This document shows, in pieces, positions 425 to 11,640 of a stretch of 11,794 bases of DNA. The position numbers and the translations under genes were made by a program. Position 1 is the stretch's first letter; every line of letters begins with the position of its first letter. The DNA comes from Candidatus Sabulitectum sp. (GTDB lineage: Bacteria; Fermentibacterota; Fermentibacteria; Fermentibacterales; Fermentibacteraceae): assembly GCA_023145935.1 (NCBI GenBank), contig JAGLDB010000043.1, positions 1 to 11,794 of the forward strand. The letters run 5' to 3'. The notes beneath the pieces were generated by a model that searched no databases, was not told the origin of the DNA, and saw only the letters and a program-made list of their open reading frames with translations.

Positions 425-1036
425 ATGACAGAACTGAGAAAAAAGCAAGAAATCAATTTCAGGAAGAACCTGATCATTGATGCTGCGAAGATCATCTTTT
501 TTGACAAAGGGTTTGAGAATTCTACCATGGAGGATATTGCCCACGAGGCTGGCTACAGCAAGGGCTCTCTCTATTCATATTTCACCAGTAAGAACGAGAT
601 TTGTTTCACAATTGTCAACAAGTATTTTTCAAAGATCGTTGATTCCATTCAGGAAATATCAGAACGGAGTGTTTCCGGACTTCAGAAACTGGTTTACATA
701 AAGAAAACATTTGTCGATAATTATGCTCAGAACTCTAAGTTCTGTAATATATATGAGACTTTTAAGTACCACCGCAGTCAGTGCTCTGAAGTAGAGAATG
801 AGATAATAATTAATGAATCTTACAACAAGAGGATCAAAGAGCTTATCATTGGAATTGTGCAGTCCGGTATCGACGATAGTTCTATCAAGGCTACTGTTGA
901 TGTTGAGAGGCTTTCGCAGTCTTTCTGGAATGAAAAGAATTGCTTCATAGCAGAAACAATGTTCAGTAAAGTTAATGCATACAACTATCTTTTTGATTTG
1001 GTAATCGATTCTATAAGAACACCGGAGGATGTATGA
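425..1036 (+). CDS. TetR/AcrR-family transcriptional regulator, first gene of the operon
   Basis: This 203-residue protein has the TetR DNA-binding domain at residues about 12-58: A-A-K-I-I-F-F-D-K-G-F, then the helix-turn-helix T-M-E-D-I-A-H-E-A-G-Y-S-K-G-S-L-Y-S-Y-F, followed by S-K-N-E-I. The C-terminal ligand domain (about 60-203) is divergent and gives no clear ligand class. It carries four cysteines (60, 107, 120, 173), which could respond to redox state or a metal, but this is speculation. AAGGA at 411-415 is the ribosome site for the ATG at 425. The stop overlaps the next start (ATGA, 1033-1036), so regulator and membrane complex are translationally coupled. An operator-like repeat sits in the promoter upstream, fitting an autoregulated repressor. 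Its third quarter (about 700-900) looks more AT-rich than the other genes, which is common for regulators. Confidence 0.93.
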   Translation: MTELRKKQEINFRKNLIIDAAKIIFFDKGFENSTMEDIAHEAGYSKGSLYSYFTSKNEICFTIVNKYFSKIVDSIQEISERSVSGLQKLVYIKKTFVDNYAQNSKFCNIYETFKYHRSQCSEVENEIIINESYNKRIKELIIGIVQSGIDDSSIKATVDVERLSQSFWNEKNCFIAETMFSKVNAYNYLFDLVIDSIRTPEDV

Positions 1037-1527
1037 AAAAAACAAAATCAGCATTTATCGGGGTGGTTATCCTGTTTGCTGTATGGGTAATGCTAACGGA
1101 TTTCTCACCGCAGGAAATGATCTTTGGCGGAGCAACTGCTCTGTTGATAGTCTTTCTTTTTCACAGCAGACTTGTTGTACTTGGGGATGTTAAGCTTAAC
1201 CCGAAATCTCTTGTCTACATGGTCATGTATCTCTTTGTTTTTTTGTGGGAACTGCTGAAATCCAATATTGATGTTGCCCGCAGGGTCATTTCTCCCAGGC
1301 TTCCTATCAATCCCGGTATTGTAAAGGTGAAGACAAGGTTGAAGAGCCCGTTGGGAAGAGCATTTCTGGCAAATTCCATAACTCTTACTCCGGGTACTCT
1401 CACTGTGGAGATGAAAGATGAGTATTTCTACATTCACTGGATAGATGTAACCAGTGAAAATATCGAAGGTGCTACGGAATCAATCGTTTCAAACTTTGAA
1501 AAGTATTTGGAGATTATCTTTGGCTGA
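1033..1527 (+). CDS. mbxA: Mrp/Mnh antiporter subunit E-like protein (MbxA-like)
   Basis: This 164-residue protein belongs to the MnhE/MrpE family. Two or three membrane segments cover residues about 7-45 and 58-78. A soluble C-terminal domain follows with the family signature N-S-I-T-L-T-P-G-T-L-T-V-E-M at 114-127. In Mrp antiporters, and in the antiporter-like module of Mbh/Mbx complexes, subunit E is one of the small membrane proteins at the distal end of the ion-pumping arm and is linked with Na+ transport. The start ATG 1033 overlaps the TetR stop by four bases and follows CGGAGG at 1023-1028. Length is normal for the family. Alone it could belong to a plain Mrp antiporter, but the NuoH/B/C/D genes downstream place it in an Mbx-type complex. 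Confidence 0.9.
   Translation: MKKTKSAFIGVVILFAVWVMLTDFSPQEMIFGGATALLIVFLFHSRLVVLGDVKLNPKSLVYMVMYLFVFLWELLKSNIDVARRVISPRLPINPGIVKVKTRLKSPLGRAFLANSITLTPGTLTVEMKDEYFYIHWIDVTSENIEGATESIVSNFEKYLEIIFG
1509..1522 (+). promoter_or_regulatory. Ribosome binding site that fixes a TTG start for the MrpF-like gene
   Basis: GGAG (1509-1512) precedes TTG (1520-1522) by seven bases. This start gives an 86-residue MrpF-like protein of normal length and an 8-base overlap with the previous gene. The in-frame ATG at 1454 would add 22 non-family residues and a 74-base overlap. Confidence 0.65.
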
Positions 1528-1780
1528 CACACTCTATAATGCTGCGGCAATAATCGCTCTGATAAGCATTGGGCTCACATTCGTAAGAATGCTTCTGGGA
1601 CCAACTGCGGCAGATCGGACAGTTGCCCTTGATTGTATGACAATTATTACGATCTCATTGATCGTGTACATTGCCTACTATCTGGACAGGATCATCTATC
1701 TTGATGTTGCAATTGTTTATGCACTGATGAGCTTTATCGGTGTAGTGGCCATTGCAAGGTATCTGGAAAGGAGAAAATAA
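1520..1780 (+). CDS. mbxB: Mrp/Mnh antiporter subunit F-like protein (MbxB-like)
   Basis: With the TTG start at 1520 this is an 86-residue protein with three membrane helices (about 4-24, 37-56, 62-80). The MrpF signature R-M-L-L-G-P-T-A-A-D-R-T-V-A-L-D is at 23-38, and a second conserved stretch, Y-L-D-V-A-I-V-Y-A-L-M-S-F, at 60-72. MrpF-type subunits pack with the E and G subunits at the end of the membrane arm, and the G-P-x-x-x-D-R segment is strongly conserved in antiporters. The TTG start was chosen because it has a well-spaced GGAG and gives the normal family length; an ATG at 1454 in the same frame is the alternative. The stop shares one base with the next gene's ATG, indicating coupled translation. 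Confidence 0.88.
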   Translation: MADTLYNAAAIIALISIGLTFVRMLLGPTAADRTVALDCMTIITISLIVYIAYYLDRIIYLDVAIVYALMSFIGVVAIARYLERRK

Positions 1781-2118
1781 TGGAATTGATCGGATCGATA
1801 GTTACATTGACAGGTTCCATTGTGCTGCTTCTTGGTGCTCTTGGGATTGTAAGAATGCCTGATGTTTACAACAGGATGCAGGCTGGAACAAAAGCAACGA
1901 CTCTGGGAACGATTCTCTTTCTGATCGGTATTTCTCTTGGAAATGCTGAATGCGGTTGTTTTGGTAAAATAGCCATACTAATTGTTTTCGTTCTTGCTAC
2001 AAATCCGGTTTCATCCAATGCTCTTGCAAGGGCAGCTTACTCTTCGGGTATTAAACTCACAGAGCGATCTGTGAAAGATGACCTGAAGTCTGACAGCGAA
2101 ACGGGGGAAGCGAAATGA
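1780..2118 (+). CDS. mbxC: Mrp/Mnh antiporter subunit G-like protein (MbxC-like)
   Basis: This 112-residue protein of the MnhG/MrpG family has three membrane helices (about 3-22, 39-55, 62-78). The near-invariant family motif R-M-P-D-V-Y-N-R-M-Q-A-G-T-K-A-T-T-L-G occupies residues 25-43. The acidic, polar C-terminal tail (about 95-112) is probably cytoplasmic. Residues 53-61 contain a small cysteine pair (N-A-E-C-G-C-F) of unknown meaning. AGGAG at 1769-1773 lies six bases before the ATG at 1780, which overlaps the preceding stop by one base. Like E and F it belongs to the sodium-handling end of Mrp-derived complexes. Confidence 0.93.
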   Translation: MELIGSIVTLTGSIVLLLGALGIVRMPDVYNRMQAGTKATTLGTILFLIGISLGNAECGCFGKIAILIVFVLATNPVSSNALARAAYSSGIKLTERSVKDDLKSDSETGEAK

Positions 2119-2363
2119 TCCCCGTAATAATAATCGGTCTCGGAGTAATCATGCTGGCAGCAGCTGTTGCAGCGATCTACTTCAAAAGTCTGCTTGCATC
2201 AATTATCAGTGCCGGAGTCATAAGCCTTCTTGCCAGTGTGATCTACCTTATACTTGGCTCTCCTGATGTTGCAATGACTGAGGCATCCATCGGATCAGGC
2301 CTTACCACTGTGATCTTCCTCTTTGCTCTGCACAGAGTACGAAAGGGGAAATCAGATGATTAA
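2115..2363 (+). CDS. mbxD: MrpA C-terminal-type small membrane subunit, DUF4040 family (MbxD-like)
   Basis: This 82-residue protein is almost entirely three hydrophobic helices (about 2-22, 27-46, 60-73) and ends in a basic-acidic tail. The segment G-S-P-D-V-A-M-T-E-A-S-I-G-S-G at 48-62 is the signature of the MrpA C-terminal/MbhD type. It includes Glu57, equivalent to a conserved buried glutamate in the ion pathway of complex I-like arms. In Mrp antiporters this segment is fused to the large MrpA subunit; in Mbh and Mbx complexes it is a separate gene, as here. ATG 2115 overlaps the previous stop by four bases (ATGA) behind a G-rich ribosome site at 2103-2107. Confidence 0.88.
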   Translation: MIPVIIIGLGVIMLAAAVAAIYFKSLLASIISAGVISLLASVIYLILGSPDVAMTEASIGSGLTTVIFLFALHRVRKGKSDD

Positions 2364-3033
2364 GAATATTGCGGTGCTTCTGGCTGTTGCGGGACTTATG
2401 ATGATCTTTCTTCCTTTGATCTCCGGATTCCAGGAGAGAGAGAATTTGAATGAACTGGCTGCGGATTATGTAGACGGTTCCATCAATGAGCTGGGTACTC
2501 CCAATGTTGTTACCTCAGTGATCGTGACTTACCGTGGTCTCGATACTCTGGGTGAGGTGACAGTACTCTTTCTTGCCACTGTGGGAGTTGGTCTGCTGTT
2601 GAAGGGCAGAAAGGGAGACATGATCCGGATCTCTTCTTCTGAACTGCTGGAAACAACCTCTTCGGTGCTGGTTGCAATGATAATGATCCTTGGGATTTAC
2701 ATCTTTACACACGGGCATCTTACGCCAGGTGGTGGATTCCAGGGAGGTGTGGTTATTGCGTCAGGTTTCCTGCTGCTGATGCTCTCGAATGTGAATGCAA
2801 AAATAAGTCATTCCATAATGAATTTTGTTGAATCATTCTCCGGAGTGGCTTATGTGGGTATTGGTGTTGCAGGTATGGTTCTGACCATTGGTTTCCTCAA
2901 CCCGGGAATACTTCCTCTGGGGCAGTTTGGAAACTTGTTCAGTGCAGGAGCTATTCCGGTTATCTATTCTCTTATCGGCCTGAAGGTTGGTTCAGAACTT
3001 ACCAGCATTCTGGTCACAATGAGAGGTGAATAA
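2356..3033 (+). CDS. mbxF: Fused MbhE-like plus MrpB/MnhB-like membrane subunit (MbxF-like)
   Basis: The 225-residue product joins two families. Residues about 1-85 look like the MrpA end/MbhE: an N-terminal helix, then N-V-V-T-S-V-I-V-T-Y-R-G-L-D-T-L-G-E-V-T-V-L at 50-71 and a second helix. Residues about 97-225 are MnhB/MrpB, with H-G-H-L-T-P-G-G-G-F-Q-G-G at 119-131 and four hydrophobic helices. Separate E and F genes occur in Mbh, whereas Mbx-type operons as I recall them lack a separate E, so this fusion supports the Mbx assignment. The start ATG 2356 is chosen because AGGGGA (2344-2349) is six bases upstream and the overlap with the previous gene is only eight bases. An upstream in-frame ATG at 2323 would add 11 polar residues of the overlapping gene. 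Confidence 0.9.
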   Translation: MIKNIAVLLAVAGLMMIFLPLISGFQERENLNELAADYVDGSINELGTPNVVTSVIVTYRGLDTLGEVTVLFLATVGVGLLLKGRKGDMIRISSSELLETTSSVLVAMIMILGIYIFTHGHLTPGGGFQGGVVIASGFLLLMLSNVNAKISHSIMNFVESFSGVAYVGIGVAGMVLTIGFLNPGILPLGQFGNLFSAGAIPVIYSLIGLKVGSELTSILVTMRGE

Positions 3034-3392
3034 TGATATCAATGTATACACTTATACTGGGAGTTGCTCTTCTGATCATAGGATTTTATGCAATGCTGAC
3101 AAGAAAGAATCTGATCAAGATAGTGATCGGATTCTCCATTGCTGACACAGGTACTCACATCATTATTGTTTCTCTGGGATACCTCAGAGGCAAGACTGCT
3201 CCCATCATTGATGGGGCGGTTAATGCTGTGAATGCTGTTCAGAAGGTTGTAGATCCAATCCCTTCAGCCCTGGTGCTTACTGCGATCGTTATCGGGCTTG
3301 CTGTAACCGCGGTAATGCTCAGTTTCATCGTTGAGATGTACAAGAAAAACAAGTCTCTTTCAATAGACGACTATCAGGAGTTAAAATGGTAA
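3033..3392 (+). CDS. mbxG: Mrp/Mnh antiporter subunit C-like, NuoK-family protein (MbxG-like)
   Basis: This 119-residue protein has three membrane helices (about 4-22, 29-50, 78-101) typical of MnhC/NuoK. The conserved segment D-P-I-P-S-A-L-V-L-T-A-I-V-I-G-L-A at 74-90 identifies it. Residues 52-73 form an alanine/valine/asparagine-rich loop between the second and third helices. NuoK-type subunits form part of the ion path at the junction between the proximal subunits and the antiporter-like channels. The ATG shares one base with the preceding stop, behind AGAGGTG at 3022-3028. The hydrophilic C-terminus (about 103-119) is likely cytoplasmic. Confidence 0.92.
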   Translation: MISMYTLILGVALLIIGFYAMLTRKNLIKIVIGFSIADTGTHIIIVSLGYLRGKTAPIIDGAVNAVNAVQKVVDPIPSALVLTAIVIGLAVTAVMLSFIVEMYKKNKSLSIDDYQELKW

Positions 3393-6300
3393 GCCCAATA
3401 TACATACTCGTACTGTCGCTGGCTGTTGGATTCCTGCTGTCGATTCTTGATAAGGGCGGAAGAAAACTGTCGCTTACAGCGTTTTACGGAGTTCTTACCT
3501 TCAATGTTGCAGTGATGGCAGACTGGCTTTACAGGCTGGTTTTCCTTCATGTGCCTGCGCTGGTAATTAACACCGCCGGTTTCAACGCCCCGATCTCCAT
3601 TAACCTGGAGCTGGGAATAACGGAAGCATTTGTGTTGCTGCTGGCAAACCTTACAGGTTTGATGGCTGCTGTTTACCTGCTTAAGAGATTTAAAGAGGGC
3701 AGGGTTTCCTCACTTATTCTCTATCTGGTTCTTATCATGGGTGTGAATGGTCTGGTGATGACACAGGATCTCTTCAACATGTTCGTATTTCTTGAGATTC
3801 TCTCTATCTCCACTTTTGCCCTTACAACTATCAAAAAGACATCAAAAACACTTTCAGCCGGTTTCAAATACATGATCGCTGGAGGCGTTGCATCCACATT
3901 CTTTCTGCTGGGAGTAGTTTTTGTTTACTACTTTACAGGAAGCTTGAATCTGGGCTTTCTTAAGGCAGGCCAGTTTGTGAATTCCGGTCTGATAGCTTTG
4001 TTCATGCTCTCAGTCTCGGTGTTTATAGAACTGAAGCCGTTCCCTGCCAACGGCTGGGCGCTGGATGTGTATCAGTCTGTTGACTCGGGTATCGTATCGA
4101 TTATTGCTGTTGTTAATTCTGCCGCTATCGGGTTTGTCTTTTACAAGATAATGCCGCTGATGCCTCAGAATTTCCTTACTGTTTTCGGTATTGCAGGAGT
4201 TGTTACATTCTTCTTCTCAAACATGATGGGTCTGAAGCAGGATAATGCAAAGAGACTTCTTGGATATTCTTCAATAGGTCAGATGGGTCTGCTGCTGGCA
4301 AGTCTTGTTTTCACCGCCGGCGTTTCAACCAATGTCAGATATCTGATAATTGGAGGGTTGTTTCTTAATCACCTGATATCCAAAGCAGGTCTTTTCTGGC
4401 TGGCGGGAATAGTTAAGCAGGATAAGATCAAGGACTGGGGCATTCTGCGGAACAGGAAACCTCTTCTGGTTCTGTTCGGGTTGTTCATATTTGCTCTTTC
4501 CGGTCTTCCTCCTTTTGCGGGTTTCTGGGCAAAGTGGGAATTCGTGAAAGTTCTGGTGGACGCAAAGATGTTCTTTGTTCTTACCTCTGTTCTGGTTGGA
4601 TCTCTTTTCGAGTTGATCTTTCTGTTCAGATGGTTCACCTCTGTGGTGAAAGATACAGATATTGCAAGTGAACCACTGGTCTCTCCAGAAAATAGTAAGT
4701 CAGCTCCTGTGATTGTATTCGGTCTTCTGGCAGTGATCATTTCCTTTGGAATAATGAGATTCTTCTACCAGTTCAACTGGATACAGGTCCTGCCCGTACT
4801 TGCGGTTCTAGTAATTACTCTTATAGATTCCCTGCCCTCAAAGGTGAAGGGATTTCTTTCTCTGGCTGCAGTGGCTGGATACGGATATTACATTTACCCT
4901 CTACTGGAGAGTAATATCCAGCTGTTTTTTGGCGTGATCTTCATAATCGGCAGCGCTGTTAATCTTATCAGTACACTGAACAGGAAGAATCAGAGCAAAG
5001 GTTTTTACGGTTTTCTGCTCATGATGATATTCTCCTTTGGAAATCTCTTGATCGCATCAACATATCTTGAATTTTTCCTGAGTTGGGAGTTTATGACCAT
5101 TTCTTCCTTCCTTCTGATACTCAGAGGACAGAAGGCCCAGAGAGCTTCGCTGATGTACATGATTTTCTCAACCGCAGGAGCTTACCTGATAATGGTGGGG
5201 TTCAGCTTCGCACCGGCACTCACATCGGCTTCGGCTCTGATACTGTCAATTGCTGAAGTGAATTTGCCCTTGATCTCAATAATTGTGCTGGCCATAGGGT
5301 TCATGATTAAGTCAGGCTCACTGGGAGTACATATCTGGCTGCCGGAGGCTCACGCCGAAGCTGAATCGGATGTTTCATCCTTTATTTCGGCAATACTGCT
5401 GAAGGCCGGTGTGTTCGGATTGCTCATGCTGGCAATTTCTTATGTGAGCCATGCTCCATCCTTTGATGTGTTCTACTGGATCGGCTGGATCGGTGTATTG
5501 ACCGCTCTTGTGGGAGCCTTCATGGCTTCTTTCCAGGAAGATGCAAAGAGACTTCTGGCATATTCCAGCATGAGTCAGGTTGGATATGTAGTTGCGGCCC
5601 TTGCGCTGATAACCCATCTGGGGTGGGTAACAGCGTTGTACCTTGCTTTCAATCACATGATGTTCAAGTCAGCATTGTTCATTGCCATTGCAGGTATTTA
5701 CTACCGTACTCACACAAGAACCATGTACAAAATGGGTGGGTTGATCTCGAAGATGCCCTGGACATACATGACGGTGCTTATGGCGATAATAGCAGTTTCA
5801 GGTGTGCCGCCTCTGTCGGGATTCGGCGGGAAATGGCTCACCTACACTGCATTTATCACAAAGGGATGGTACCTGCAGGCAGGAGTTCTTTTCTTCGCCT
5901 CCGGTGTGAGCTTCCTTTATCTGTACCGGTTGATCCACACGATCTTCCTCGGCCAGTTGAAATACGAGCATCAGAATATCAAGGAAGCCCCGTTTTGGTT
6001 CATCATTCCCCAGTACATTTTTCTGGGGGGGATCATGGCAATATCCATGTTTCCGAATCTGATAATCAAGCCTCTGAATTCCATCGCCATGCGTTACTTC
6101 GAATCATCAATTCAGATCGATGGATTGACCATCGTAAGTGATCTGGGCTACTGGAACGGGAATATGGTGATGTATGTAACAATGGCTGTGTTCGCTGTGC
6201 CGTTCATTCTGCTCATGCTTGTTAAAGGCAGAACACAGAAAGTGGAGCAGTTCAACATTGTCTATGCTGCCGAGAGACCGGAATCTCCACAGACAACCCA

Positions 6301-6508
6301 TGTCGCTCACAATATGTATGCACACTACAGAAAAGCACTTGGCAGATTAACGCTGCCCAGAATTCAGGATTTCTGGAACGGTGTTGCTGAGTGGGCTCAT
6401 ACCTCCGGTGGTTTCTTCCGCCGGGTATATACCGGGAATGGTCAGACATATGTTCTGCATATAATAATGTATATCGTAGTGATATATGTTGTAATGGGAG
6501 TACAATAA
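3386..6508 (+). CDS. Double antiporter-like subunit: two MrpD/NuoM/NuoN-type channels in one chain (MbxH-H' fusion)
   Basis: At 1040 residues this is about twice the usual MrpD length. Both halves carry the proton-antiporter domain. The first half (about 1-480) has the helix-5 glutamate E137 in N-M-F-V-F-L-E-I-L, K217 in E-L-K-P-F-P-A-N-G-W, D-N-A-K-R-L-L-G-Y-S-S-I-G-Q at 286-299, and K333 in N-H-L-I-S-K-A-G. The second half (about 510-945) has E568 in S-W-E-F-M, K642 in F-M-I-K-S-G, K673 in L-L-K-A-G, D-A-K-R-L-L-A-Y-S-S at 719-728, and K761 in N-H-M-M-F-K-S-A. A soluble stretch (about 948-1018) and a final helix (1022-1038) end the protein, as in HyfB/MbhH'-like proteins. The frame is continuous with no sign of error. 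In archaeal mbx operons H and H' are, as I recall, separate genes. These channels would carry out the ion translocation. CAGGAG (3375-3380) precedes the ATG by five bases. Confidence 0.93.
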   Translation: MVSPIYILVLSLAVGFLLSILDKGGRKLSLTAFYGVLTFNVAVMADWLYRLVFLHVPALVINTAGFNAPISINLELGITEAFVLLLANLTGLMAAVYLLKRFKEGRVSSLILYLVLIMGVNGLVMTQDLFNMFVFLEILSISTFALTTIKKTSKTLSAGFKYMIAGGVASTFFLLGVVFVYYFTGSLNLGFLKAGQFVNSGLIALFMLSVSVFIELKPFPANGWALDVYQSVDSGIVSIIAVVNSAAIGFVFYKIMPLMPQNFLTVFGIAGVVTFFFSNMMGLKQDNAKRLLGYSSIGQMGLLLASLVFTAGVSTNVRYLIIGGLFLNHLISKAGLFWLAGIVKQDKIKDWGILRNRKPLLVLFGLFIFALSGLPPFAGFWAKWEFVKVLVDAKMFFVLTSVLVGSLFELIFLFRWFTSVVKDTDIASEPLVSPENSKSAPVIVFGLLAVIISFGIMRFFYQFNWIQVLPVLAVLVITLIDSLPSKVKGFLSLAAVAGYGYYIYPLLESNIQLFFGVIFIIGSAVNLISTLNRKNQSKGFYGFLLMMIFSFGNLLIASTYLEFFLSWEFMTISSFLLILRGQKAQRASLMYMIFSTAGAYLIMVGFSFAPALTSASALILSIAEVNLPLISIIVLAIGFMIKSGSLGVHIWLPEAHAEAESDVSSFISAILLKAGVFGLLMLAISYVSHAPSFDVFYWIGWIGVLTALVGAFMASFQEDAKRLLAYSSMSQVGYVVAALALITHLGWVTALYLAFNHMMFKSALFIAIAGIYYRTHTRTMYKMGGLISKMPWTYMTVLMAIIAVSGVPPLSGFGGKWLTYTAFITKGWYLQAGVLFFASGVSFLYLYRLIHTIFLGQLKYEHQNIKEAPFWFIIPQYIFLGGIMAISMFPNLIIKPLNSIAMRYFESSIQIDGLTIVSDLGYWNGNMVMYVTMAVFAVPFILLMLVKGRTQKVEQFNIVYAAERPESPQTTHVAHNMYAHYRKALGRLTLPRIQDFWNGVAEWAHTSGGFFRRVYTGNGQTYVLHIIMYIVVIYVVMGVQ

Positions 6509-7431
6509 TGAGTATATGGACACAAGTATTATACGCTGCCATTTCAGTAACCGTTGCCACCGTGTATGGCCTTACGCTGGGCGGAATTGTCCGGAAGCTG
6601 TATGCCAGGGTCCATGGAAGATTCGGCCCGCCTGTATGGCAGCCCTTTCTTGACATAATTCAAACCAGCAGCCGAAGAGTATCAGTGTCACATGGGAATA
6701 TGTTCCTTCTCGGGCCAGTTTTCAGACTGGCAGGTGGGCTGGGTACATATCTCTTCATTCCGGTAATTTACGGTTCTGCTCTGTTCGGCAATTTTTCCAT
6801 GACCGGTGATCTTCTTCTTGTGATGTATTTTGTCTTCTTCGGCCAGCTGGGAATGGCTCTTGGGGCAGGTCAGGGCGGTCACCCTTACTCGCCACTGGGA
6901 ATTGCCCGTGGTCTTGCCCAGATGTCTGCTTTTGAAGTTCCGTTCACTCTTGCTGTTATTGCTGTTGCAATTCAGTATCACTCGCTGAACATCACATCCA
7001 TTGTTGCGGCACAGCAGGGCAGTTTCCTTAACTGGACACTTTTCACAAACCCGCTGGCTGTGATCGCCGCCATGATCTCCATGCTGGGAATGAACATGCA
7101 TTCTCCGTTCAGCATAGTTCTGGCGCCGCAGGAGATACCAATCGGTCCGCCTATCGAGATGAACAGCGGTTTTCTTAGTATTCTGCAGACAAACAGAGGT
7201 CTTTTCGCTGCTGCTAAATTGGTTCTTTTCATGAACCTGTTCTTCGGTGGAGCCACCAATCTTCTTGAGATGATAGCAAAGACTTTCTTCATCTACATGT
7301 TCTCGGTATTTGTAGGGGCGGCATATCCACGGTTCAGACCTGAGCAGTCTTTCAGGTTCTTCCTGAAATGGCCAACCGTAGTCGGTGTACTGTCCATTAT
7401 CTACATAGCGTATCTTGGGGGTGTATTGTGA
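6508..7431 (+). CDS. mbxM: NuoH/MbhM-like membrane anchor subunit (MbxM-like)
   Basis: The 307-residue product is a respiratory-chain NADH dehydrogenase subunit 1 (NuoH) family protein with about eight membrane helices. Conserved features are G-R-F-G-P-P-V-W-Q-P at 37-46, P-Y-S-P-L-G-I-A-R-G-L-A-Q-M-S-A-F-E at 126-143 (Glu143), and the acidic loop A-P-Q-E-I-P-I-G-P-P-I-E at 206-217 (Glu209, Glu217). These residues face the soluble arm in complex I and start the chain of charges into the membrane. The subunit anchors the J/K/L arm to the antiporter-like module. The start ATG 6508 overlaps the previous stop by one base and has GGGAG at 6496-6500. Length is close to that of MbhM and slightly shorter than NuoH. 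Confidence 0.94.
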   Translation: MSIWTQVLYAAISVTVATVYGLTLGGIVRKLYARVHGRFGPPVWQPFLDIIQTSSRRVSVSHGNMFLLGPVFRLAGGLGTYLFIPVIYGSALFGNFSMTGDLLLVMYFVFFGQLGMALGAGQGGHPYSPLGIARGLAQMSAFEVPFTLAVIAVAIQYHSLNITSIVAAQQGSFLNWTLFTNPLAVIAAMISMLGMNMHSPFSIVLAPQEIPIGPPIEMNSGFLSILQTNRGLFAAAKLVLFMNLFFGGATNLLEMIAKTFFIYMFSVFVGAAYPRFRPEQSFRFFLKWPTVVGVLSIIYIAYLGGVL

Positions 7432-8069
7432 ACAAAAAACACATAGACGAGATAGAAGATCAGATGAAACTGGCTAATGAGGGACTTCCGGAAAAGGAAC
7501 GCTGCCTCTTTGCCGACGCCCGTCCTTCCACTGTTGATGCGTTCAATAAATACTACGAGGGCTTTTTGAACTGGGCTCGTTCCCGCTCGCTCTGGATGCT
7601 CGCATTCGGTACCGGTTGTGGTGCCACAGAGCTCAGGCCTCTTATGACTTCCCGGTATGACATGTTCAGGTATGGAATTGCTCCCAGACCCACACCCAGG
7701 CAGGCTTCTGTTTTTGTTGTAGGTGGTTACGCTTCCATAAAGACCATCAAACGAATCGTACGGAGTTACGAGCAGATGCAGGGTCCCAAGTATGTAATAG
7801 CACTTGGAAGCTGCACCATCAACGGCGGAATGTACTTTGACAGTTACAACACCATCAACAGGCTGGATTACTACATCCCGGTGGATGTGTATATCGCCGG
7901 TTGCATGCCCAGACCTGAAGCACTTATCGCAGGTTTCAACAGATTAAAAGAAAAGATAAGAGCAGGCGAGTGCGAAGGAATGAACGAGTATGCAGAGAAG
8001 TTTGACTGGTTCAAGAAGAATCAGAAACAGATCATCAAAGACTGGAATATGCCGGACTACAACTGGTAA
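7428..8069 (+). CDS. mbxJ: NuoB/MbhJ-like iron-sulfur subunit with an altered cysteine pair (MbxJ-like)
   Basis: This 213-residue protein is homologous to NuoB and to the small subunit of group 4 hydrogenases, which hold the [4Fe-4S] cluster nearest the active cavity. Conserved segments are G-T-G-C-G-A-T-E-L at 61-69 with R-Y-D-M-F-R-Y-G after it, A-L-G-S-C-T-I-N-G-G at 125-134, and A-G-C-M-P-R-P-E-A-L at 157-166. Cys64, Cys129 and Cys159 are therefore present. The second cysteine of the usual NuoB pair is Gly65, and no CxxC replaces it; Cys26 and Cys182 are the only other cysteines. The GTG start (7428) overlaps the previous stop in GTGA and follows a run of five Gs (7417-7421). There is no membrane helix, so it belongs to the cytoplasmic arm. 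Confidence 0.92.
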   Translation: MNKKHIDEIEDQMKLANEGLPEKERCLFADARPSTVDAFNKYYEGFLNWARSRSLWMLAFGTGCGATELRPLMTSRYDMFRYGIAPRPTPRQASVFVVGGYASIKTIKRIVRSYEQMQGPKYVIALGSCTINGGMYFDSYNTINRLDYYIPVDVYIAGCMPRPEALIAGFNRLKEKIRAGECEGMNEYAEKFDWFKKNQKQIIKDWNMPDYNW

Positions 8070-8083
8070 CAACAGGAGTAAAT

Positions 8084-8644
8084 ATGGAGCAACTGATAAA
8101 AAAATTAAAAGGAATGGTCCATCTCAGGGCATACAGGAAGCAGAGAGATGATCTTCATTTTATAACGGTGGACAAGCCACAGCTGGAGATGATCCTTGCT
8201 CACTTGAAGAACAACGAAGGATTTACCCATCTGGCTTTCCTGCAGGCTGTGGATCTTATAGAGGGCGGTAAGTTTCAGCTTACATATATGCTCTATAATT
8301 ATGGCACAAGTGTTAATCTTGGAGTGAATGTTCTTATAGACAGAGACAATGCCGAGATGAATTCCATTCACAAGTTGTGGGCTCACGGGTGGCAGTATCA
8401 GAGGGAACTGCACGAGCTATACGGCATTGATTTCCCTGGTTCTCCACGGGTTCATGAATCATTCGTTCTTGAAGGCTGGGAGGAAATGCCTCCCATGAGA
8501 AGAGATTTTGATACACTGGAGTACTCCGATAAGACCTTCTACCAGCGTCCGGGAAGATCCACAAATGATCCTGCAGAGTACATGAAAGAGAAAATGTATA
8601 AACACTATCCACCATCTCCCGGAATCAGGAGGGATGATGAGTAA
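8084..8644 (+). CDS. mbxK: NuoC/MbhK-like 30-kDa-type subunit (MbxK-like)
   Basis: This 186-residue soluble protein belongs to the complex I 30-kDa (NuoC) family. The signature covers residues about 105-142: Y-Q-R-E-L-H-E-L-Y-G-I-D-F-P-G-S-P-R, then P-M-R-R-D-F-D. It corresponds to NuoC's ERE.YDLFGI.F.GHP....R. It binds no cofactor in known relatives and packs between the NuoB- and NuoD-like subunits. The region before the signature (about 20-100) matches the family fold by its alternating pattern only. AGGAG (8074-8078) lies five bases before the ATG, after one of the two true intergenic gaps in the operon (14 bases). The last 8 bases overlap the NuoD-like gene. Confidence 0.9.
   Translation: MEQLIKKLKGMVHLRAYRKQRDDLHFITVDKPQLEMILAHLKNNEGFTHLAFLQAVDLIEGGKFQLTYMLYNYGTSVNLGVNVLIDRDNAEMNSIHKLWAHGWQYQRELHELYGIDFPGSPRVHESFVLEGWEEMPPMRRDFDTLEYSDKTFYQRPGRSTNDPAEYMKEKMYKHYPPSPGIRRDDE
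8627..8639 (+). promoter_or_regulatory. Ribosome binding site for the NuoD-like gene inside the end of the NuoC-like gene
   Basis: AGGAGG (8627-8632) is followed by tandem ATG codons at 8634 and 8637. The first is only one base from the site and the second four bases, so 8637 is preferred. The difference is one methionine. Confidence 0.6.
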
Positions 8645-9836
8645 TTTATCCAAAAACAAATATAGCGGGTATGATGCGGACAGATCAAAGTATCCGGAGA
8701 TGGAGAACGGCAAAGCTGTTATTGATCTTGATTCACACAAGTTCACTAAGATATGGCAGGGTCCCCAGCACCCGGGTGTAACAGGGAATATGTCTGTTGA
8801 GCTTGTTATTAACGGCGATGAGATCGTCTGGGCTAAAACACATCTTGGCTACCTCCACAGAGCTTTTGAAAAGCTTATGGAAAGAAGAAAGTACATACAG
8901 TGCTTTCCACTTGTCTGCAGGATATGTGTACCTGAGCCTGATACAAACGAGTACTGTGTATCCGCTGCCATGGAAGACCTTGCAGGGATAATTGTTCCTG
9001 AAAAAGCTCAGTGGCTTCGAACTCTTAATCTTGAGATGTCTCGAATAGGCAGCTATCTCATGTGGTTAGGTGGTCAGGCCGGTTCTCTGGGTATGGGTGC
9101 AATAGGTCAATGGACTGTGGGTATGCGTGACTTCTGGCTGGATCTTTTTGAAGAGATGACCGGAGGCAGGGTATACCACATGTACATGATTCCAGGCGGT
9201 GTGAGAAAAGATCTTCCGGATGGTTTCAAAGAAAGAGCGAGGGATCTGATCGTCAGAACTAGAAAACTTCTTGGGGACGTCGAGAACACATTCCTTTCCA
9301 ATGCAATAGTGAAATCAAGATTGCAGGGGCTTGGGATCATTACACCGGAGATGGTGGATGAGTACGGTATTGTGGGCCCCAATGCAAGAGCAACCGGAAG
9401 AGAGTATGACATAAGGATCAACAATCCGTATGTGAAGTACAGCGAGCTTGATGTAAAAATGATAACTTCCACTGTGGGAGATGCTTACGCAAGAGCACAA
9501 TTGAGATACAATGATCTTCATCAGAGCCTTGACCTAGTATCCGAGATACTTGACAGAATACCGGAAGACGGTGCGATACAGGCAGAGATGCCCAATCTGG
9601 TCAACTGGAAGATACCACCTGGACAAACCTATGTGAAAGCTGAATCAACTCGTGGTGAACACGGATTCTATATGGTTTCCGATGGCACTGGAAAACCAAG
9701 AAGGGTTTTTGCCAGGGGTGCCAGCTACACCCATGCGATCTCTGTTCTGGAAGAACTGGCAGTGAACATCAGCCTTTCTGATCTTGCTGCTCTTATGGTT
9801 TCTCTCCACACATGCCCACCGGAAATTGAGAGGTGA
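8637..9836 (+). CDS. mbxL: NuoD / group 4 hydrogenase large subunit-like protein with incomplete NiFe ligands (MbxL-like)
   Basis: The 399-residue product is homologous to NuoD and to MbhL/EchE-type large subunits. Residues about 67-88 hold H-L-G-Y-L-H-R-A-F-E-K-L-M-E-R-R, the counterpart of H.G..HRG.EK. The usual R-I-C-G-x-C (L1) reads R-I-C-V-P-E, so Cys97 is kept and its partner is Glu100. The C-terminal D-P-C-x-x-C (L2) reads H-T-C-P-P-E-I-E-R, so Cys393 is kept and its partner is Glu396. A complete NiFe site is therefore impossible, and a hydrogenase reaction is not expected. Extra cysteines at 89, 94 and 107 surround L1. The fold between is normal (P-G-G-V-R-K-D near 186-192, G-P-N-A-R-A-T-G-R-E at 247-256). 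Length fits the family. It forms the catalytic cavity with the NuoB-like subunit. Start 8634 is an alternative, adding one residue. Confidence 0.93.
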   Translation: MSNLSKNKYSGYDADRSKYPEMENGKAVIDLDSHKFTKIWQGPQHPGVTGNMSVELVINGDEIVWAKTHLGYLHRAFEKLMERRKYIQCFPLVCRICVPEPDTNEYCVSAAMEDLAGIIVPEKAQWLRTLNLEMSRIGSYLMWLGGQAGSLGMGAIGQWTVGMRDFWLDLFEEMTGGRVYHMYMIPGGVRKDLPDGFKERARDLIVRTRKLLGDVENTFLSNAIVKSRLQGLGIITPEMVDEYGIVGPNARATGREYDIRINNPYVKYSELDVKMITSTVGDAYARAQLRYNDLHQSLDLVSEILDRIPEDGAIQAEMPNLVNWKIPPGQTYVKAESTRGEHGFYMVSDGTGKPRRVFARGASYTHAISVLEELAVNISLSDLAALMVSLHTCPPEIER

Positions 9837-9840
9837 AAAA

Positions 9841-11640
9841 ATGAAACTGAAAGATGTACTGTCACCTCTAAGGGTCTGGGAGCGGGCAGCTCAAAAACCA
9901 TGGACCATCAAAGATCCCATAAATGACAGACCTGGAGCTGACAATTACAGGGGATTTCACAAGAACGATTTCAGTAAGTGTATCGGTTGTGGAACCTGTG
10001 AAGAGATCTGTCAGAATGATGCAATTGATATTGTTCCGGTTGAAGGGCAGGAAACAGTTGAAGGCGATAGCGGCTTAAGGCCATTGATTGATTATGGCCG
10101 TTGCTGCTGGTGTGCCCTCTGCGTGGATGTTTGCCCCACAGGCTCACTTACAATGTCAAACGACTACACCTGGATCGCTGATGACCCTGAGGATTACAGG
10201 TTTGTTCCAGGAGCAGACAAGACCAAGTGGCAGGATTCAAAGGTTGGTTACAGCCGCTCTCCAGACATCCAGATCCTGGATTATGACAGAGTAGATATGC
10301 TGGAGATCAAACCGGAAGACCGTGACAAGTCGTTTATTGAGATAGTAAAGGGATACAACAAAGAGCAGGCCATGAAGGAAGCAGAGAGATGCATTCAATG
10401 TGGTCTCTGTACAGCCACATGTCCGGCTCATATGGACATCCCGGGGTACATCGCTGCCATCAGGGATGATGATCTGGATAATGCCCTGAGGATACTCTAT
10501 GAAACAAACCCCATGCCGGAGATATGCGGTCGTATCTGTACACACAAGTGTGAAACCGTATGTGCTCTGCACAACAATGGTGACCCATTGGCCATAAGAT
10601 GGCTGAAGAGATACATCGTTGATCAGATCCCAGCAGATAAGTACCAGGAGATCCTTGGAACAGCCCATCTTGCAGATGAGATACTGAACCGGAAAGTTGC
10701 CATAATCGGAGCAGGCCCTGCAGGGGTATCAGCTGCCTACTATCTGGCAATAATGGGCTACAAAACGAAGATATTTGAAGCCCTGCCTGCGTCAGGTGGT
10801 ATGGCCAGATACGGTATTCCAGAGTACAGGCTTCCTTACGATCAGATCGATAAGGATGTTGACTACCTGAAAACACTTGGTGTAGAGATACAGTACAACA
10901 CCAGAATAGGTACAGACATTTCACTGGAGGAACTGCACAACAGTTACGATGCTGTGTTCGCAGGAACAGGGCTGCATCTTGGCAGAAGCACACGGGTTCC
11001 AGGCGCAGATCATCAGAGGGTCTATTTCGCAACAGACCTTCTTCGTGAAGTTACTCTTGGGAACGAGATTGATGTGGCGGAGAACATCGTTGTTATCGGT
11101 GGCGGAAATGTGGCAATGGATATCACAAGAACTCTGGCAAGACTTCAGAATCAGAAGTACGGCAAGGTGAAAGTTCTTGCTACCTGTCTGGAAGCAGAGG
11201 AAGTAATGCCTGCGGACCTTGAGGAAATAGTGGAGGCTCGTGAAGAAAATGCTATTATTGACCCTGCATGGGGACCGAAGGAAATAGAGATCAAAGACGG
11301 AAAAGTACAGGGACTTCATGTGGTGAAGTGCCTCTCTGTGTTTGATGAAGATGGAAGGTTCAACCCGAAATTTGATGAAGAGCAGAAGAAGTTCTTCAAG
11401 GCAGACATGATTGTTGAATCCATCGGTCAGGGAATGGATCTTTCCTACCTCTCTAAAGACATCAAATCGAAACTTAAATTCAGTCCCAGGGGCAGAATCG
11501 AAGTAAATGACAAATTCCAGTCAGAGTTGAAGTGGTTCTTCGTTGGTGGAGACATCATCGAAGGCCCCGATGTTATTCACGGTATTGCCAACGGCTTTGT
11601 GGCTGCCCGTGGAATCGACAGCTACCTGAACAGGAATTAG
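9841..11640 (+). CDS. Fusion of a NuoI/MbxN-like two-cluster ferredoxin with a GltD/NfnL-type NAD(P)H flavoprotein
   Basis: The 599-residue product has three parts. Residues 1-150 are NuoI/MbxN-like, with C47-C50-C53-C57 and C88-C91-C94-C98, two [4Fe-4S] clusters. Residues about 165-275 are the GltD N-terminal cluster domain (C184-C187-C190-C194 and C229-C233-C237-C241 in C-G-R-I-C-T-H-K-C-E-T-V-C). Residues about 284-599 are the flavoprotein: FAD site V-A-I-I-G-A-G-P-A-G at 286-295, second dinucleotide site I-V-V-I-G-G-G-N-V-A-M-D at 416-427, and the C-terminal FAD motif G-G-D-I-I-E-G-P-D-V-I-H-G at 569-581. The YRR motif expected after the second site in NADPH enzymes reads T-C-L at 448-450. 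The protein probably links a pyridine nucleotide to the clusters of the complex. ATG 9841 follows AGGTGA (9831-9836) and lies four bases after the previous gene; it is the last gene of the operon. It could be annotated as glutamate synthase small subunit, but no GltB-like gene is present here. Confidence 0.93.
   Translation: MKLKDVLSPLRVWERAAQKPWTIKDPINDRPGADNYRGFHKNDFSKCIGCGTCEEICQNDAIDIVPVEGQETVEGDSGLRPLIDYGRCCWCALCVDVCPTGSLTMSNDYTWIADDPEDYRFVPGADKTKWQDSKVGYSRSPDIQILDYDRVDMLEIKPEDRDKSFIEIVKGYNKEQAMKEAERCIQCGLCTATCPAHMDIPGYIAAIRDDDLDNALRILYETNPMPEICGRICTHKCETVCALHNNGDPLAIRWLKRYIVDQIPADKYQEILGTAHLADEILNRKVAIIGAGPAGVSAAYYLAIMGYKTKIFEALPASGGMARYGIPEYRLPYDQIDKDVDYLKTLGVEIQYNTRIGTDISLEELHNSYDAVFAGTGLHLGRSTRVPGADHQRVYFATDLLREVTLGNEIDVAENIVVIGGGNVAMDITRTLARLQNQKYGKVKVLATCLEAEEVMPADLEEIVEAREENAIIDPAWGPKEIEIKDGKVQGLHVVKCLSVFDEDGRFNPKFDEEQKKFFKADMIVESIGQGMDLSYLSKDIKSKLKFSPRGRIEVNDKFQSELKWFFVGGDIIEGPDVIHGIANGFVAARGIDSYLNRN

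What the first reader, a model, noticed from the sequence alone, without database searches (positions are those of the whole stretch)
9841..11640. A GltD/NfnL-type flavoprotein is hard-wired to the NuoI-like subunit of an Mbx-type ion pump
One chain carries the two-cluster ferredoxin that belongs in the complex (MbxN/NuoI position) and a complete NAD(P)H-oxidising flavin module with two more clusters: four [4Fe-4S] clusters and one FAD in sequence. In complex I the nucleotide enters through NuoEFG, and archaeal Mbx is, as I recall, served by soluble ferredoxin. Here a glutamate-synthase-type flavoprotein appears to replace NuoF, giving a compact alternative complex I. It could run as ferredoxin:NAD(P)+ oxidoreductase or as NAD(P)H-dependent sulfur reduction coupled to ion pumping. 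I recall that some Thermotogales have a GltD-like gene beside their mbx genes, so the association may be known while the fusion may not be. No NfnS partner is present in the window.
Basis: partly seen in the sequence, partly recalled or inferred. Interest (0 to 1): 0.75.

Follow-up and report, generated by a model that had tools for sequence, protein, structure and literature searches.

The report
NADH-fed MBS-type ion pump subunit
A bacterial relative of respiratory complex I carries its own NAD(P)H-oxidising module welded onto the iron-sulfur subunit that feeds the pump, which probably lets the cell drop NADH electrons onto sulfur compounds while pumping ions; the fusion is real and widespread rather than unique to this genome.

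Summary
Window 9841-11640 encodes 599 aa: a two-cluster NuoI/MbsN-like ferredoxin, a GltD-type two-cluster domain and an FAD/NAD(P) module, last gene of a twelve-gene mrp-mbx operon. It is no one-off: it matches NCBIfam PRK13984 end to end (below its cut-off), and the same fusion ends the same operon in many phyla (73 of 73 loci with room to see the neighbour). Corrections: (1) the core looks MBS-type: three-cysteine proximal cluster, no [NiFe] cysteine pairs, no quinone residues; (2) the flavin module resembles StnC rather than NfnL: invariant Lys where NfnL has Glu; StnC's flavin is reported non-bifurcating; (3) this copy has Leu-Glu instead of the NADP-type Arg-Arg, so NADH is predicted, while a paralogous operon in the genus keeps Arg-Arg. 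On the tree the fusion rows share one branch and Leu-Glu arose once below the window's clade (and once elsewhere). Relatives show no GltB-sized gene and no MqnA/D or MenB, but have Rnf. Best reading: a NADH:polysulfide (or disulfide) oxidoreductase that pumps ions. Acceptor, direction and pumping are inferred; cluster distances could not be measured.

The parts
9841..11640 (+). NuoI/MbsN-like ferredoxin fused to GltD/StnC-type FAD-NAD(H) module (599 aa)
9976..10143 (+). two-[4Fe-4S] ferredoxin domain (residues 46-101; Cys 47,50,53,57,88,91,94,98)
   Evidence: Fer4_7 match; Cys invariant in 150 of 150 rows
10324..10629 (+). GltD-type two-[4Fe-4S] domain (residues 162-263; Cys 184,187,190,194,229,233,237,241; Lys256)
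   Evidence: Fer4_20; Cys and Lys256 invariant in 150 of 150 rows
10693..11580 (+). FAD/NAD(P)-binding module (residues 285-580), Leu450-Glu451 at the presumed 2'-phosphate site
   Evidence: Pyr_redox_2; motif comparison
8634..9836 (+). MbsL/NuoD-like subunit; keeps Cys98 and Cys394 (MbsL C85, C385), lacks the second Cys of each [NiFe] pair and the quinone His/Tyr
   Evidence: best PDB match 6u8y_L 330 bits
8084..8644 (+). MbsK/NuoC-like subunit
   Evidence: PF00329; best PDB match 6u8y_K, 44 bits against 37 for the next
7428..8069 (+). MbsJ/NuoB-like subunit with three-cysteine proximal [4Fe-4S] site (TGCG motif)
   Evidence: best PDB match 6u8y_J 219 bits; start (GTG) inferred from the ORF
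6508..7431 (+). MbsM/NuoH-like membrane anchor
   Evidence: PF00146; best PDB match 6u8y_M; start (ATG) inferred from the ORF
3386..6508 (+). two antiporter-like pump subunits (MbsH + MbsH') in one 1040-aa chain
   Evidence: best PDB matches 6u8y_X (second half) and 6u8y_H (first half); one ORF in 55 of 59 loci
3033..3392 (+). MrpC/NuoK-like subunit
   Evidence: PF00420, NCBIfam
2356..3033 (+). MrpB-like subunit
   Evidence: NCBIfam
2115..2363 (+). MbhD/DUF4040-like subunit
   Evidence: NCBIfam
1780..2118 (+). MrpG-like subunit
   Evidence: PF03334, NCBIfam over cut-off
1520..1780 (+). MrpF-like subunit (start not settled; listed ORF begins GTG 1454)
   Evidence: NCBIfam
1033..1527 (+). MrpE-like subunit
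   Evidence: PF01899, NCBIfam
425..1036 (+). TetR-family regulator overlapping the start of the operon by 4 bases
   Evidence: PF00440

Best explanation
It is the electron-input subunit of a bacterial MBS/MBX-type, complex-I-related ion pump in which the soluble ferredoxin donor of the archaeal enzyme is replaced, or supplemented, by a built-in NAD(H) dehydrogenase. Proposed path: NADH gives a hydride to the non-bifurcating FAD of the GltD module; electrons pass singly through the Lys256-associated FAD-proximal [4Fe-4S], the second GltD cluster and the two NuoI/MbsN-like clusters to the three-cysteine proximal [4Fe-4S] of the MbsJ-like subunit, whose open iron reduces a polysulfide or disulfide in the MbsL/MbsJ/MbsM chamber; the redox step drives the fused MbsH-MbsH' antiporter-like pumps and Mrp module to export Na+ or H+. 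Shown by sequence: architecture, operon, conserved cysteines, MBS-type catalytic site, motifs. Inferred: electron order, acceptor, NADH preference, pumping, direction.
For: Operon and architecture. The best PDB match is the MBS complex 6u8y for H, H', M, J, K and L, and 6u8y_N is the best match of the fusion's ferredoxin part. Proximal cluster: the MbsJ C28, C93 and C123 positions are each Cys in 70 of 72 loci with a NuoB hit (all three in 69; L017, L029, L052 look fragmentary); position 25, dispensable in MBS, is Gly in 65 of 72 (PMC7684303 sections 10-11). No NuoD-like row has a full [NiFe] Cys pair (0 of 86). The Nqo4 H38 and Y87 positions are Thr in 77 and Val in 81 of 81 ungapped rows. 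Operon link: NuoD-like gene within 700 nt upstream in 73 of 73 loci with room, H-B-C-D in 63 of 63, all twelve upstream probes in 48 of 49. Lys256 aligns with StnC K170; StnC's FAD is described as non-bifurcating (PMC10482914 passages). Leu-Glu motif in 43 of 43 A-type and 37 of 37 C-type rows, Arg-Arg in 68 of 70 B-type rows. Relatives: MqnA/D 0 of 24, MenB 0 of 24, RnfC_N strong (over 95 bits) in 21 of 24. T. maritima mbxA rises with S0 or thiosulfate (PMC9431562 passages).
Against: No activity, structure or expression datum for this complex. Sulfane as acceptor rests on the MBS resemblance alone; C85 and C385 vary in relatives (58 of 81 and 52 of 86), although those cysteines are dispensable in MBS. 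NADH to polysulfide is a drop of only about 50-60 mV (recalled potentials), so few ions per pair could be pumped. MBS itself uses ferredoxin, and ferredoxin docking at the NuoI-like domain is not excluded. UbiA-superfamily genes occur in 24 of 24 relatives and only two menaquinone markers were tested, so a prenylated carrier is not fully excluded. Cluster distances were not measured. The window's own assembly is not held; genome-level claims come from relatives, some of them incomplete.
Confidence: 0.5

Rival explanations
1. Ion-pumping ferredoxin:NAD+ oxidoreductase: reduced ferredoxin docks on the NuoI-like domain, the GltD module reduces NAD+, and the MbsJ/MbsL site is vestigial or only transmits conformational change.
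For: Archaeal MBS takes ferredoxin electrons at MbsN (PMC7684303); the GltD fold is that of ferredoxin-linked NfnL and of StnC; P. furiosus Mbx has been described as a ferredoxin:NADP+ oxidoreductase (PMC6349859 passage).
Against: The three-cysteine proximal site is kept in 69 of 72 loci and the other three look fragmentary, which a bypassed site would not need; Rnf, which does this reaction, is present in the family; complex-I-type coupling is thought to need the redox step at the proximal site (recalled).
Confidence: 0.2
2. Alternative complex I: NADH to a quinone-like acceptor.
For: Homology to NuoB/C/D/H/I; UbiA-superfamily genes in 24 of 24 relatives; some carriers outside this phylum belong to quinone-using groups (titles; quinone use recalled).
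Against: Quinone-site Tyr of Nqo4 absent in 81 of 81 rows and His in 81 of 81 (Thr 77, Val 2, Ser 1, Asn 1); MqnA/D and MenB found in 0 of 24 relatives with controls ringing in 4 and 11 of 14; PMC5763382 says the relative Sabulitectum lacked a respiratory chain (passage).
Confidence: 0.1
3. Reversible complex run backwards: sulfide, polysulfide or thiol oxidation pushed uphill to NAD+ by the ion gradient, at least in sulfur-oxidising carriers.
For: Small driving force makes the reaction near-reversible (recalled potentials); carriers include Chlorobiota, Rhodospirillaceae and Rhodocyclaceae MAGs (that these oxidise sulfur was not tested).
Against: The window's relatives look like fermenters that need to dispose of electrons (PMC5763382 passages); direction not testable by sequence.
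Confidence: 0.12
4. Free cytosolic glutamate synthase small subunit that partners a GltB elsewhere.
For: Some sources name such proteins 'glutamate synthase small chain'; weak partial Glu_synthase hits, several over the Pfam cut-off, exist in the genus.
Against: Those hits cover at most about 105 of 369 positions at 18-22 bits, with none in G001 and G002; invariant N-terminal ferredoxin and operon position.
Confidence: 0.02

Closest known systems
Membrane-bound sulfane reductase MBS of Pyrococcus furiosus (formerly MBX, recalled; PDB 6u8y)
   Same: Same kind of subunit set; best PDB match for each core subunit tested; three-cysteine proximal cluster; residual C85 and C385; no quinone residues.
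   Different: MbsN is a short ferredoxin subunit (208 aa) fed by soluble ferredoxin; here it carries a GltD-type NAD(H) module. MbsH and MbsH' are separate chains there and fused here.
MBX of Thermotoga maritima
   Same: 13-subunit MBS homologue of a bacterium, induced by sulfur (PMC9431562, passages); T. maritima is among the 7 of 14 control genomes that ring for NF010590, one of the 7 (not named) over the cut-off.
   Different: The passages I saw treat it as ferredoxin-fed and the text holds no mention of glutamate synthase; I could not read the T. maritima gene, nor tell whether its control hit is the fusion or an unfused GltD.
NCBIfam NF010590 / PRK13984 'putative oxidoreductase'
   Same: Full-length match, residues 2-598 to positions 7-608 of 611.
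   Different: 874 bits, below the family cut-off of 946; no function attached.
StnC of the Stn transhydrogenase (PDB 8oh5_C)
   Same: GltD module fused to a complex-I-type iron-sulfur part; Lys at the FAD-proximal cluster (K170 aligns with Lys256) and the FAD-site Arg (R239 aligns with Arg330); relay through a cluster chain.
   Different: Fused to NuoG-like domains, NADPH with Arg-Arg motif, feeds a bifurcating FMN in StnB.
NfnL (4ylf_B, 5jca_L)
   Different: Glu instead of Lys at the cluster, NADP-type Arg-Arg, NfnS partner (recalled), no ferredoxin domain.

Membership tests
MBS/MBX membrane-bound sulfane reductase | Subunit set: Mrp-like module, two antiporter-like pumps, NuoH/B/C/D-like and two-cluster ferredoxin | tested here: met
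   set shared by 48 of 49 long loci
MBS/MBX membrane-bound sulfane reductase | Proximal [4Fe-4S] bound by only three cysteines (MbsJ C28, C93, C123) | tested here: met
   window Cys at all three, Gly at dispensable position 25; all three in 69 of 72 loci; ligation itself not observed
MBS/MBX membrane-bound sulfane reductase | Two of the four [NiFe] cysteines left (C85, C385), second of each pair lost | tested here: met
   window Cys98 and Cys394; no full pair in 86 rows
MBS/MBX membrane-bound sulfane reductase | Quinone-headgroup residues of complex I absent | tested here: met
   Thr50 and Val99 in the window
MBS/MBX membrane-bound sulfane reductase | Equivalent of MbhL E21 absent | not tested
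   named in PMC7684303; not aligned here
MBS/MBX membrane-bound sulfane reductase | Polysulfide reduction with reduced ferredoxin and ion pumping | not testable with these tools
   needs purified enzyme
StnC-type GltD module | Lys at the FAD-proximal cluster | tested here: met
   Lys256 in 150 of 150 rows; aligned to StnC K170
StnC-type GltD module | NADPH use (Arg-Arg motif) | tested here: not met
   Leu450-Glu451 in the window and its clade; Arg-Arg in the B-type paralogue
StnC-type GltD module | Fused NuoG-like domains and StnAB partners | tested here: not met
   NuoI-like instead; no such partners in the window
NfnL | Glu at the FAD-proximal cluster | tested here: not met
   Lys256; 8 of 8 unfused NfnL/GltD-like rows have Glu
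NfnL | NfnS partner in the operon | tested here: not met
   no NfnS gene in the window; only 154 bases follow the fusion
NfnL | GltD-type fold with FAD and two clusters | tested here: met
Glutamate synthase small subunit GltD | GltB partner encoded in the genome | tested here: inconclusive
   no GltB-sized match in 13 same-genus genomes, but partial 18-22 bit hits, some over the 20.4 cut-off; own genome not held
Respiratory complex I | NuoEFG input module | tested here: inconclusive
   none in the window; genomes not searched for them
Respiratory complex I | Quinone-site His and Tyr of the NuoD subunit | tested here: not met
Energy-converting [NiFe] hydrogenase (Mbh, Ech) | Four cysteines binding NiFe | tested here: not met
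PRK13984 / NF010590 | Full-length match over the curated cut-off | tested here: inconclusive
   full length but 874 of 946 bits

The most novel reading that the evidence does not exclude
Bacterial MBX is, as a rule, not a ferredoxin-driven copy of archaeal MBS but a family of self-contained, reversible NAD(P)H:sulfane ion pumps: a complex-I-like respiratory enzyme that needs neither quinone nor soluble ferredoxin. It arose by one fusion, then split into NADH-linked (A and C) and NADPH-linked (B) paralogues that coexist in one cell and let it couple each pyridine-nucleotide pool to sulfur separately; in sulfur-oxidising lineages the same machine could run backwards to make NADH.
Probability: 0.3. 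Interest if true: 0.85.

Novelty: new variant of a known kind. Interest (0 to 1): 0.6.

Why it matters
If true, NADH can be respired onto sulfur compounds with direct ion pumping in bacteria in which no menaquinone markers were found, through an enzyme halfway between archaeal MBS and complex I. It shows a second way to bolt a pyridine-nucleotide module onto a complex-I relative (GltD instead of NuoEFG), gives a natural pair of NADH- and NADPH-type paralogues to test the nucleotide switch, and warns that Mrp-linked 'group 4 hydrogenases' in such genomes may not make hydrogen.

Tried and rejected
A first AlphaFold run with 30 close homologues was poor (pLDDT 62.5) and was not used; the deep alignment gave pLDDT 91.6. 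Model coordinates are not released to the Python box, so the 14 A test could not be done; no distance is claimed. The fold search was filled by the GltD domain; the ferredoxin half was not tested by fold. The [NiFe] hydrogenase, quinone reductase, free GltD and NfnL readings were considered and set aside for the reasons given. The plasmid search gave matches all under 60% identity (192 records, 5 listed). Promoter-like hits were at chance level (22 found, shuffles 20.1); terminator-like hits exceeded it (17 found, shuffles 9.7); neither was pursued. Dropped rows: 7 truncated loci in which both pump probes hit one place are left out of my count (55 of 59 instead of the printed 62 of 66); three short hits (P0269, P0270, P0276) were left out of A2. 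The types A, B and C are named by which search returned the row; on the tree B is not one clade. Literature: ten searches; none of the listings I saw, nor the passages I opened, describes the NuoI-GltD fusion in MBX. Also opened, passages only and nothing on the fusion: PMC6085437, PMC2246101, PMC12724263. Subscription papers on MBX (recalled, e.g. the Schut and Adams reviews) are not in the library, so I cannot say it is unpublished. T. maritima's gene itself could not be fetched.

Full report
WHAT IS THERE. The ORF at 9841-11640 is real and encodes 599 aa. Pfam sees a two-cluster ferredoxin (46-101), the GltD/DPD two-cluster domain Fer4_20 (162-263) and Pyr_redox_2 (285-580). NCBIfam's best model is PRK13984/NF010590, matched over nearly its whole length at 874 bits (cut-off 946), with NuoI models on residues about 15-123. 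It is the last of a collinear set of twelve: mrpE, mrpF, mrpG, mbhD-like, mrpB, mrpC, a fused double antiporter subunit, nuoH-, nuoB-, nuoC-, nuoD-like, then the fusion. A TetR-type gene overlaps the start.

NOT A ONE-OFF. A protein search listed its best 120 relatives, all 593-610 aa with 99-100% of the query covered. Their titles name Fermentibacteraceae, Cloacimonadota, Delongbacteria, Aminicenantes, Bacteroidetes groups, Chlorobiota, Spirochaetes, Neomarinimicrobiota, Deltaproteobacteria, Rhodocyclaceae and Rhodospirillaceae. Of those 80, 73 have at least 1 kb upstream and all 73 have a nuoD-like hit within 700 nt; 63 of 63 with 3.5 kb have H-B-C-D; 48 of 49 with 9 kb have all twelve upstream probes (the two pump halves were probed apart and can cross-hit; L077 lacks hits to mrpE and mrpF). 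The two halves of the fusion lie in one ORF in 87 of 88 loci with hits to both (L014 is split, perhaps a frameshift). The two pumps lie in one ORF in 55 of 59 loci with two separate places (the call prints 62 of 66; I dropped 7 truncated rows). The conserved link to the operon is the main evidence that the flavoprotein belongs to the pump.

THE CORE IS MBS-TYPE. For each core subunit searched, the best PDB chain is from the Pyrococcus furiosus membrane-bound sulfane reductase 6u8y: J 219 bits (next 142), L 330 (next 189), H, X, M, and K by a narrow margin (44 against 37); 6u8y_N is the best match of the fusion's ferredoxin part. I read sections 10 and 11 and passages of the MBS structure paper PMC7684303: its proximal cluster has three cysteine ligands (C28, C93, C123), C25 is dispensable, two of four [NiFe] cysteines remain, and the complex I quinone residues are missing. 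The window has Cys at the three positions and Gly at 25. Over 72 loci with a NuoB hit, each position is Cys in 70 and all three in 69; L017, L029 and L052 look fragmentary. Over 86 rows with a NuoD hit none has a full [NiFe] Cys pair, and the H38 and Y87 positions are Thr (77 of 81 ungapped; the rest Val, Ser, Asn) and Val (81 of 81). C85 and C385 are less constant (58 of 81, 52 of 86); in MBS they are not needed.

WHICH NUCLEOTIDE. StnC, NfnABC and NfnL chains have Tyr-Arg-Arg, or a close form of it, at the matching place of the nucleotide fold; reading this as the NADP phosphate site is recalled knowledge. The window has Cys-Leu-Glu. Three types of fusion were compared, named by the search that returned them: A (window; 43 of 43 Leu-Glu), C (37 of 37 Leu-Glu), B (68 of 70 Arg-Arg, 2 Leu-Glu). 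By score, six of 13 same-genus genomes (G004, G005, G007, G009, G011, G013) hold full-length A- and B-like copies together and G011 a C-like one too (operons read for G004, G009 in part and G011). A tree of the GltD part without the motif columns (64 rows, short search, SH-aLRT only) puts all 54 fusion rows on one side of a branch (100) and needs two changes of motif: one below the A+C clade (99), one in P0268. Rooted on the unfused rows, Leu-Glu is derived from Arg-Arg; the B rows are not one clade. The prediction is NADH for this copy and NADPH for the B copy.

PHYSIOLOGY OF RELATIVES. The window's own assembly is not held; the nearest genome shares 30% of sampled words and carries a 97% identical fragment covering residues 1-222. 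GltB: in 13 same-genus genomes only partial 18-22 bit hits (none in G001, G002), several just over the 20.4 cut-off, while 14 of 14 controls ring. MqnA/D 0 of 24 and MenB 0 of 24 (controls 4 and 11 of 14); UbiA superfamily 24 of 24; [NiFe] hydrogenase family 22 of 24; RnfC_N 24 of 24, of which 21 strong and 3 only weak partial hits. PMC5763382 (passages) describes the Fermentibacteria Sabulitectum with rnf and an NADH oxidoreductase transcribed and no respiratory chain.

MECHANISM. NADH, FAD, four [4Fe-4S] clusters in one chain, then the open-iron cluster of the MbsJ-like subunit and a sulfane or disulfide acceptor, with pumping by the fused antiporter pair. Architecture and conserved cysteines are shown; the donor is predicted from a motif; acceptor, direction and pumping are inferred from MBS. 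The energy drop from NADH to polysulfide is small (recalled potentials), which argues for few ions per pair and perhaps reversibility.

LITERATURE. PMC9431562 (passages) predicts T. maritima MBX to be a sulfur reductase and in those passages gives it no NAD(P)H module; PMC10356935 (passages) describes a bacterial 13-gene MBS fed by ferredoxin; PMC6349859 (passages) calls P. furiosus Mbx a ferredoxin:NADP+ oxidoreductase and discusses Ehr complexes. None of the listings or passages I saw mentions the fusion, but key subscription papers are not held.

VERDICT. Observation confirmed; interpretation partly right. A well-spread variant of a known kind.

Noticed in passing
window 3386-6508: Two antiporter-like pump subunits (MbsH and MbsH' homologues) are fused in one 1040-aa chain; the same single ORF is seen in 55 of 59 informative loci, while C-type operons (L089, L091) and L065 keep them apart and L014 may be frameshifted.
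   Followed up: partly
L087, L089, L091 against the window: The family carries up to three paralogous operons of this kind (A, B, C) with different nucleotide motifs; G011 has all three by score.
   Followed up: yes
directly 3' of the fusion in L004, L006, L007, L023; L008, L009, L018, L029, L041, L047; L044, L065, L067, L071, L080: Of 20 loci looked at, the next gene looks like a CBS-pair protein in 4, a dihydroorotate-dehydrogenase-like flavoprotein in 6 and a rubrerythrin/ferritin-like protein in 5; Pfam confirmed 7 of these 15, the rest by resemblance. They may be regulators or partners of the GltD module.
   Followed up: partly
L005 about 511-1713 (Ca. Zophobacter) and relatives: PMC8542988 (passages) reports Mrp-linked group 4g [NiFe] hydrogenases in Ca. 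Cloacimonadota (its text names Zophobacter, its table gives none for it); the NuoD-like subunit in L005 lacks the [NiFe] cysteine pairs, so some such calls may be this complex. That it is the same gene was not shown.
   Followed up: partly
L065 10001-11839: Ferredoxin half only 47% but GltD half 69% identical to the window, with divergent other subunits: looks like a recombined or converted fusion gene.
   Followed up: no
window 425-1036: TetR-family gene overlapping mrpE; also upstream in L004, L065 and L086, with no upstream hit in the other loci, many of which end near the operon start.
   Followed up: no
window residue Cys89 of the fusion: An extra cysteine next to the second ferredoxin motif (CCWC), conserved in at least 90% of 150 rows, that is not one of the expected ligands.
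   Followed up: no
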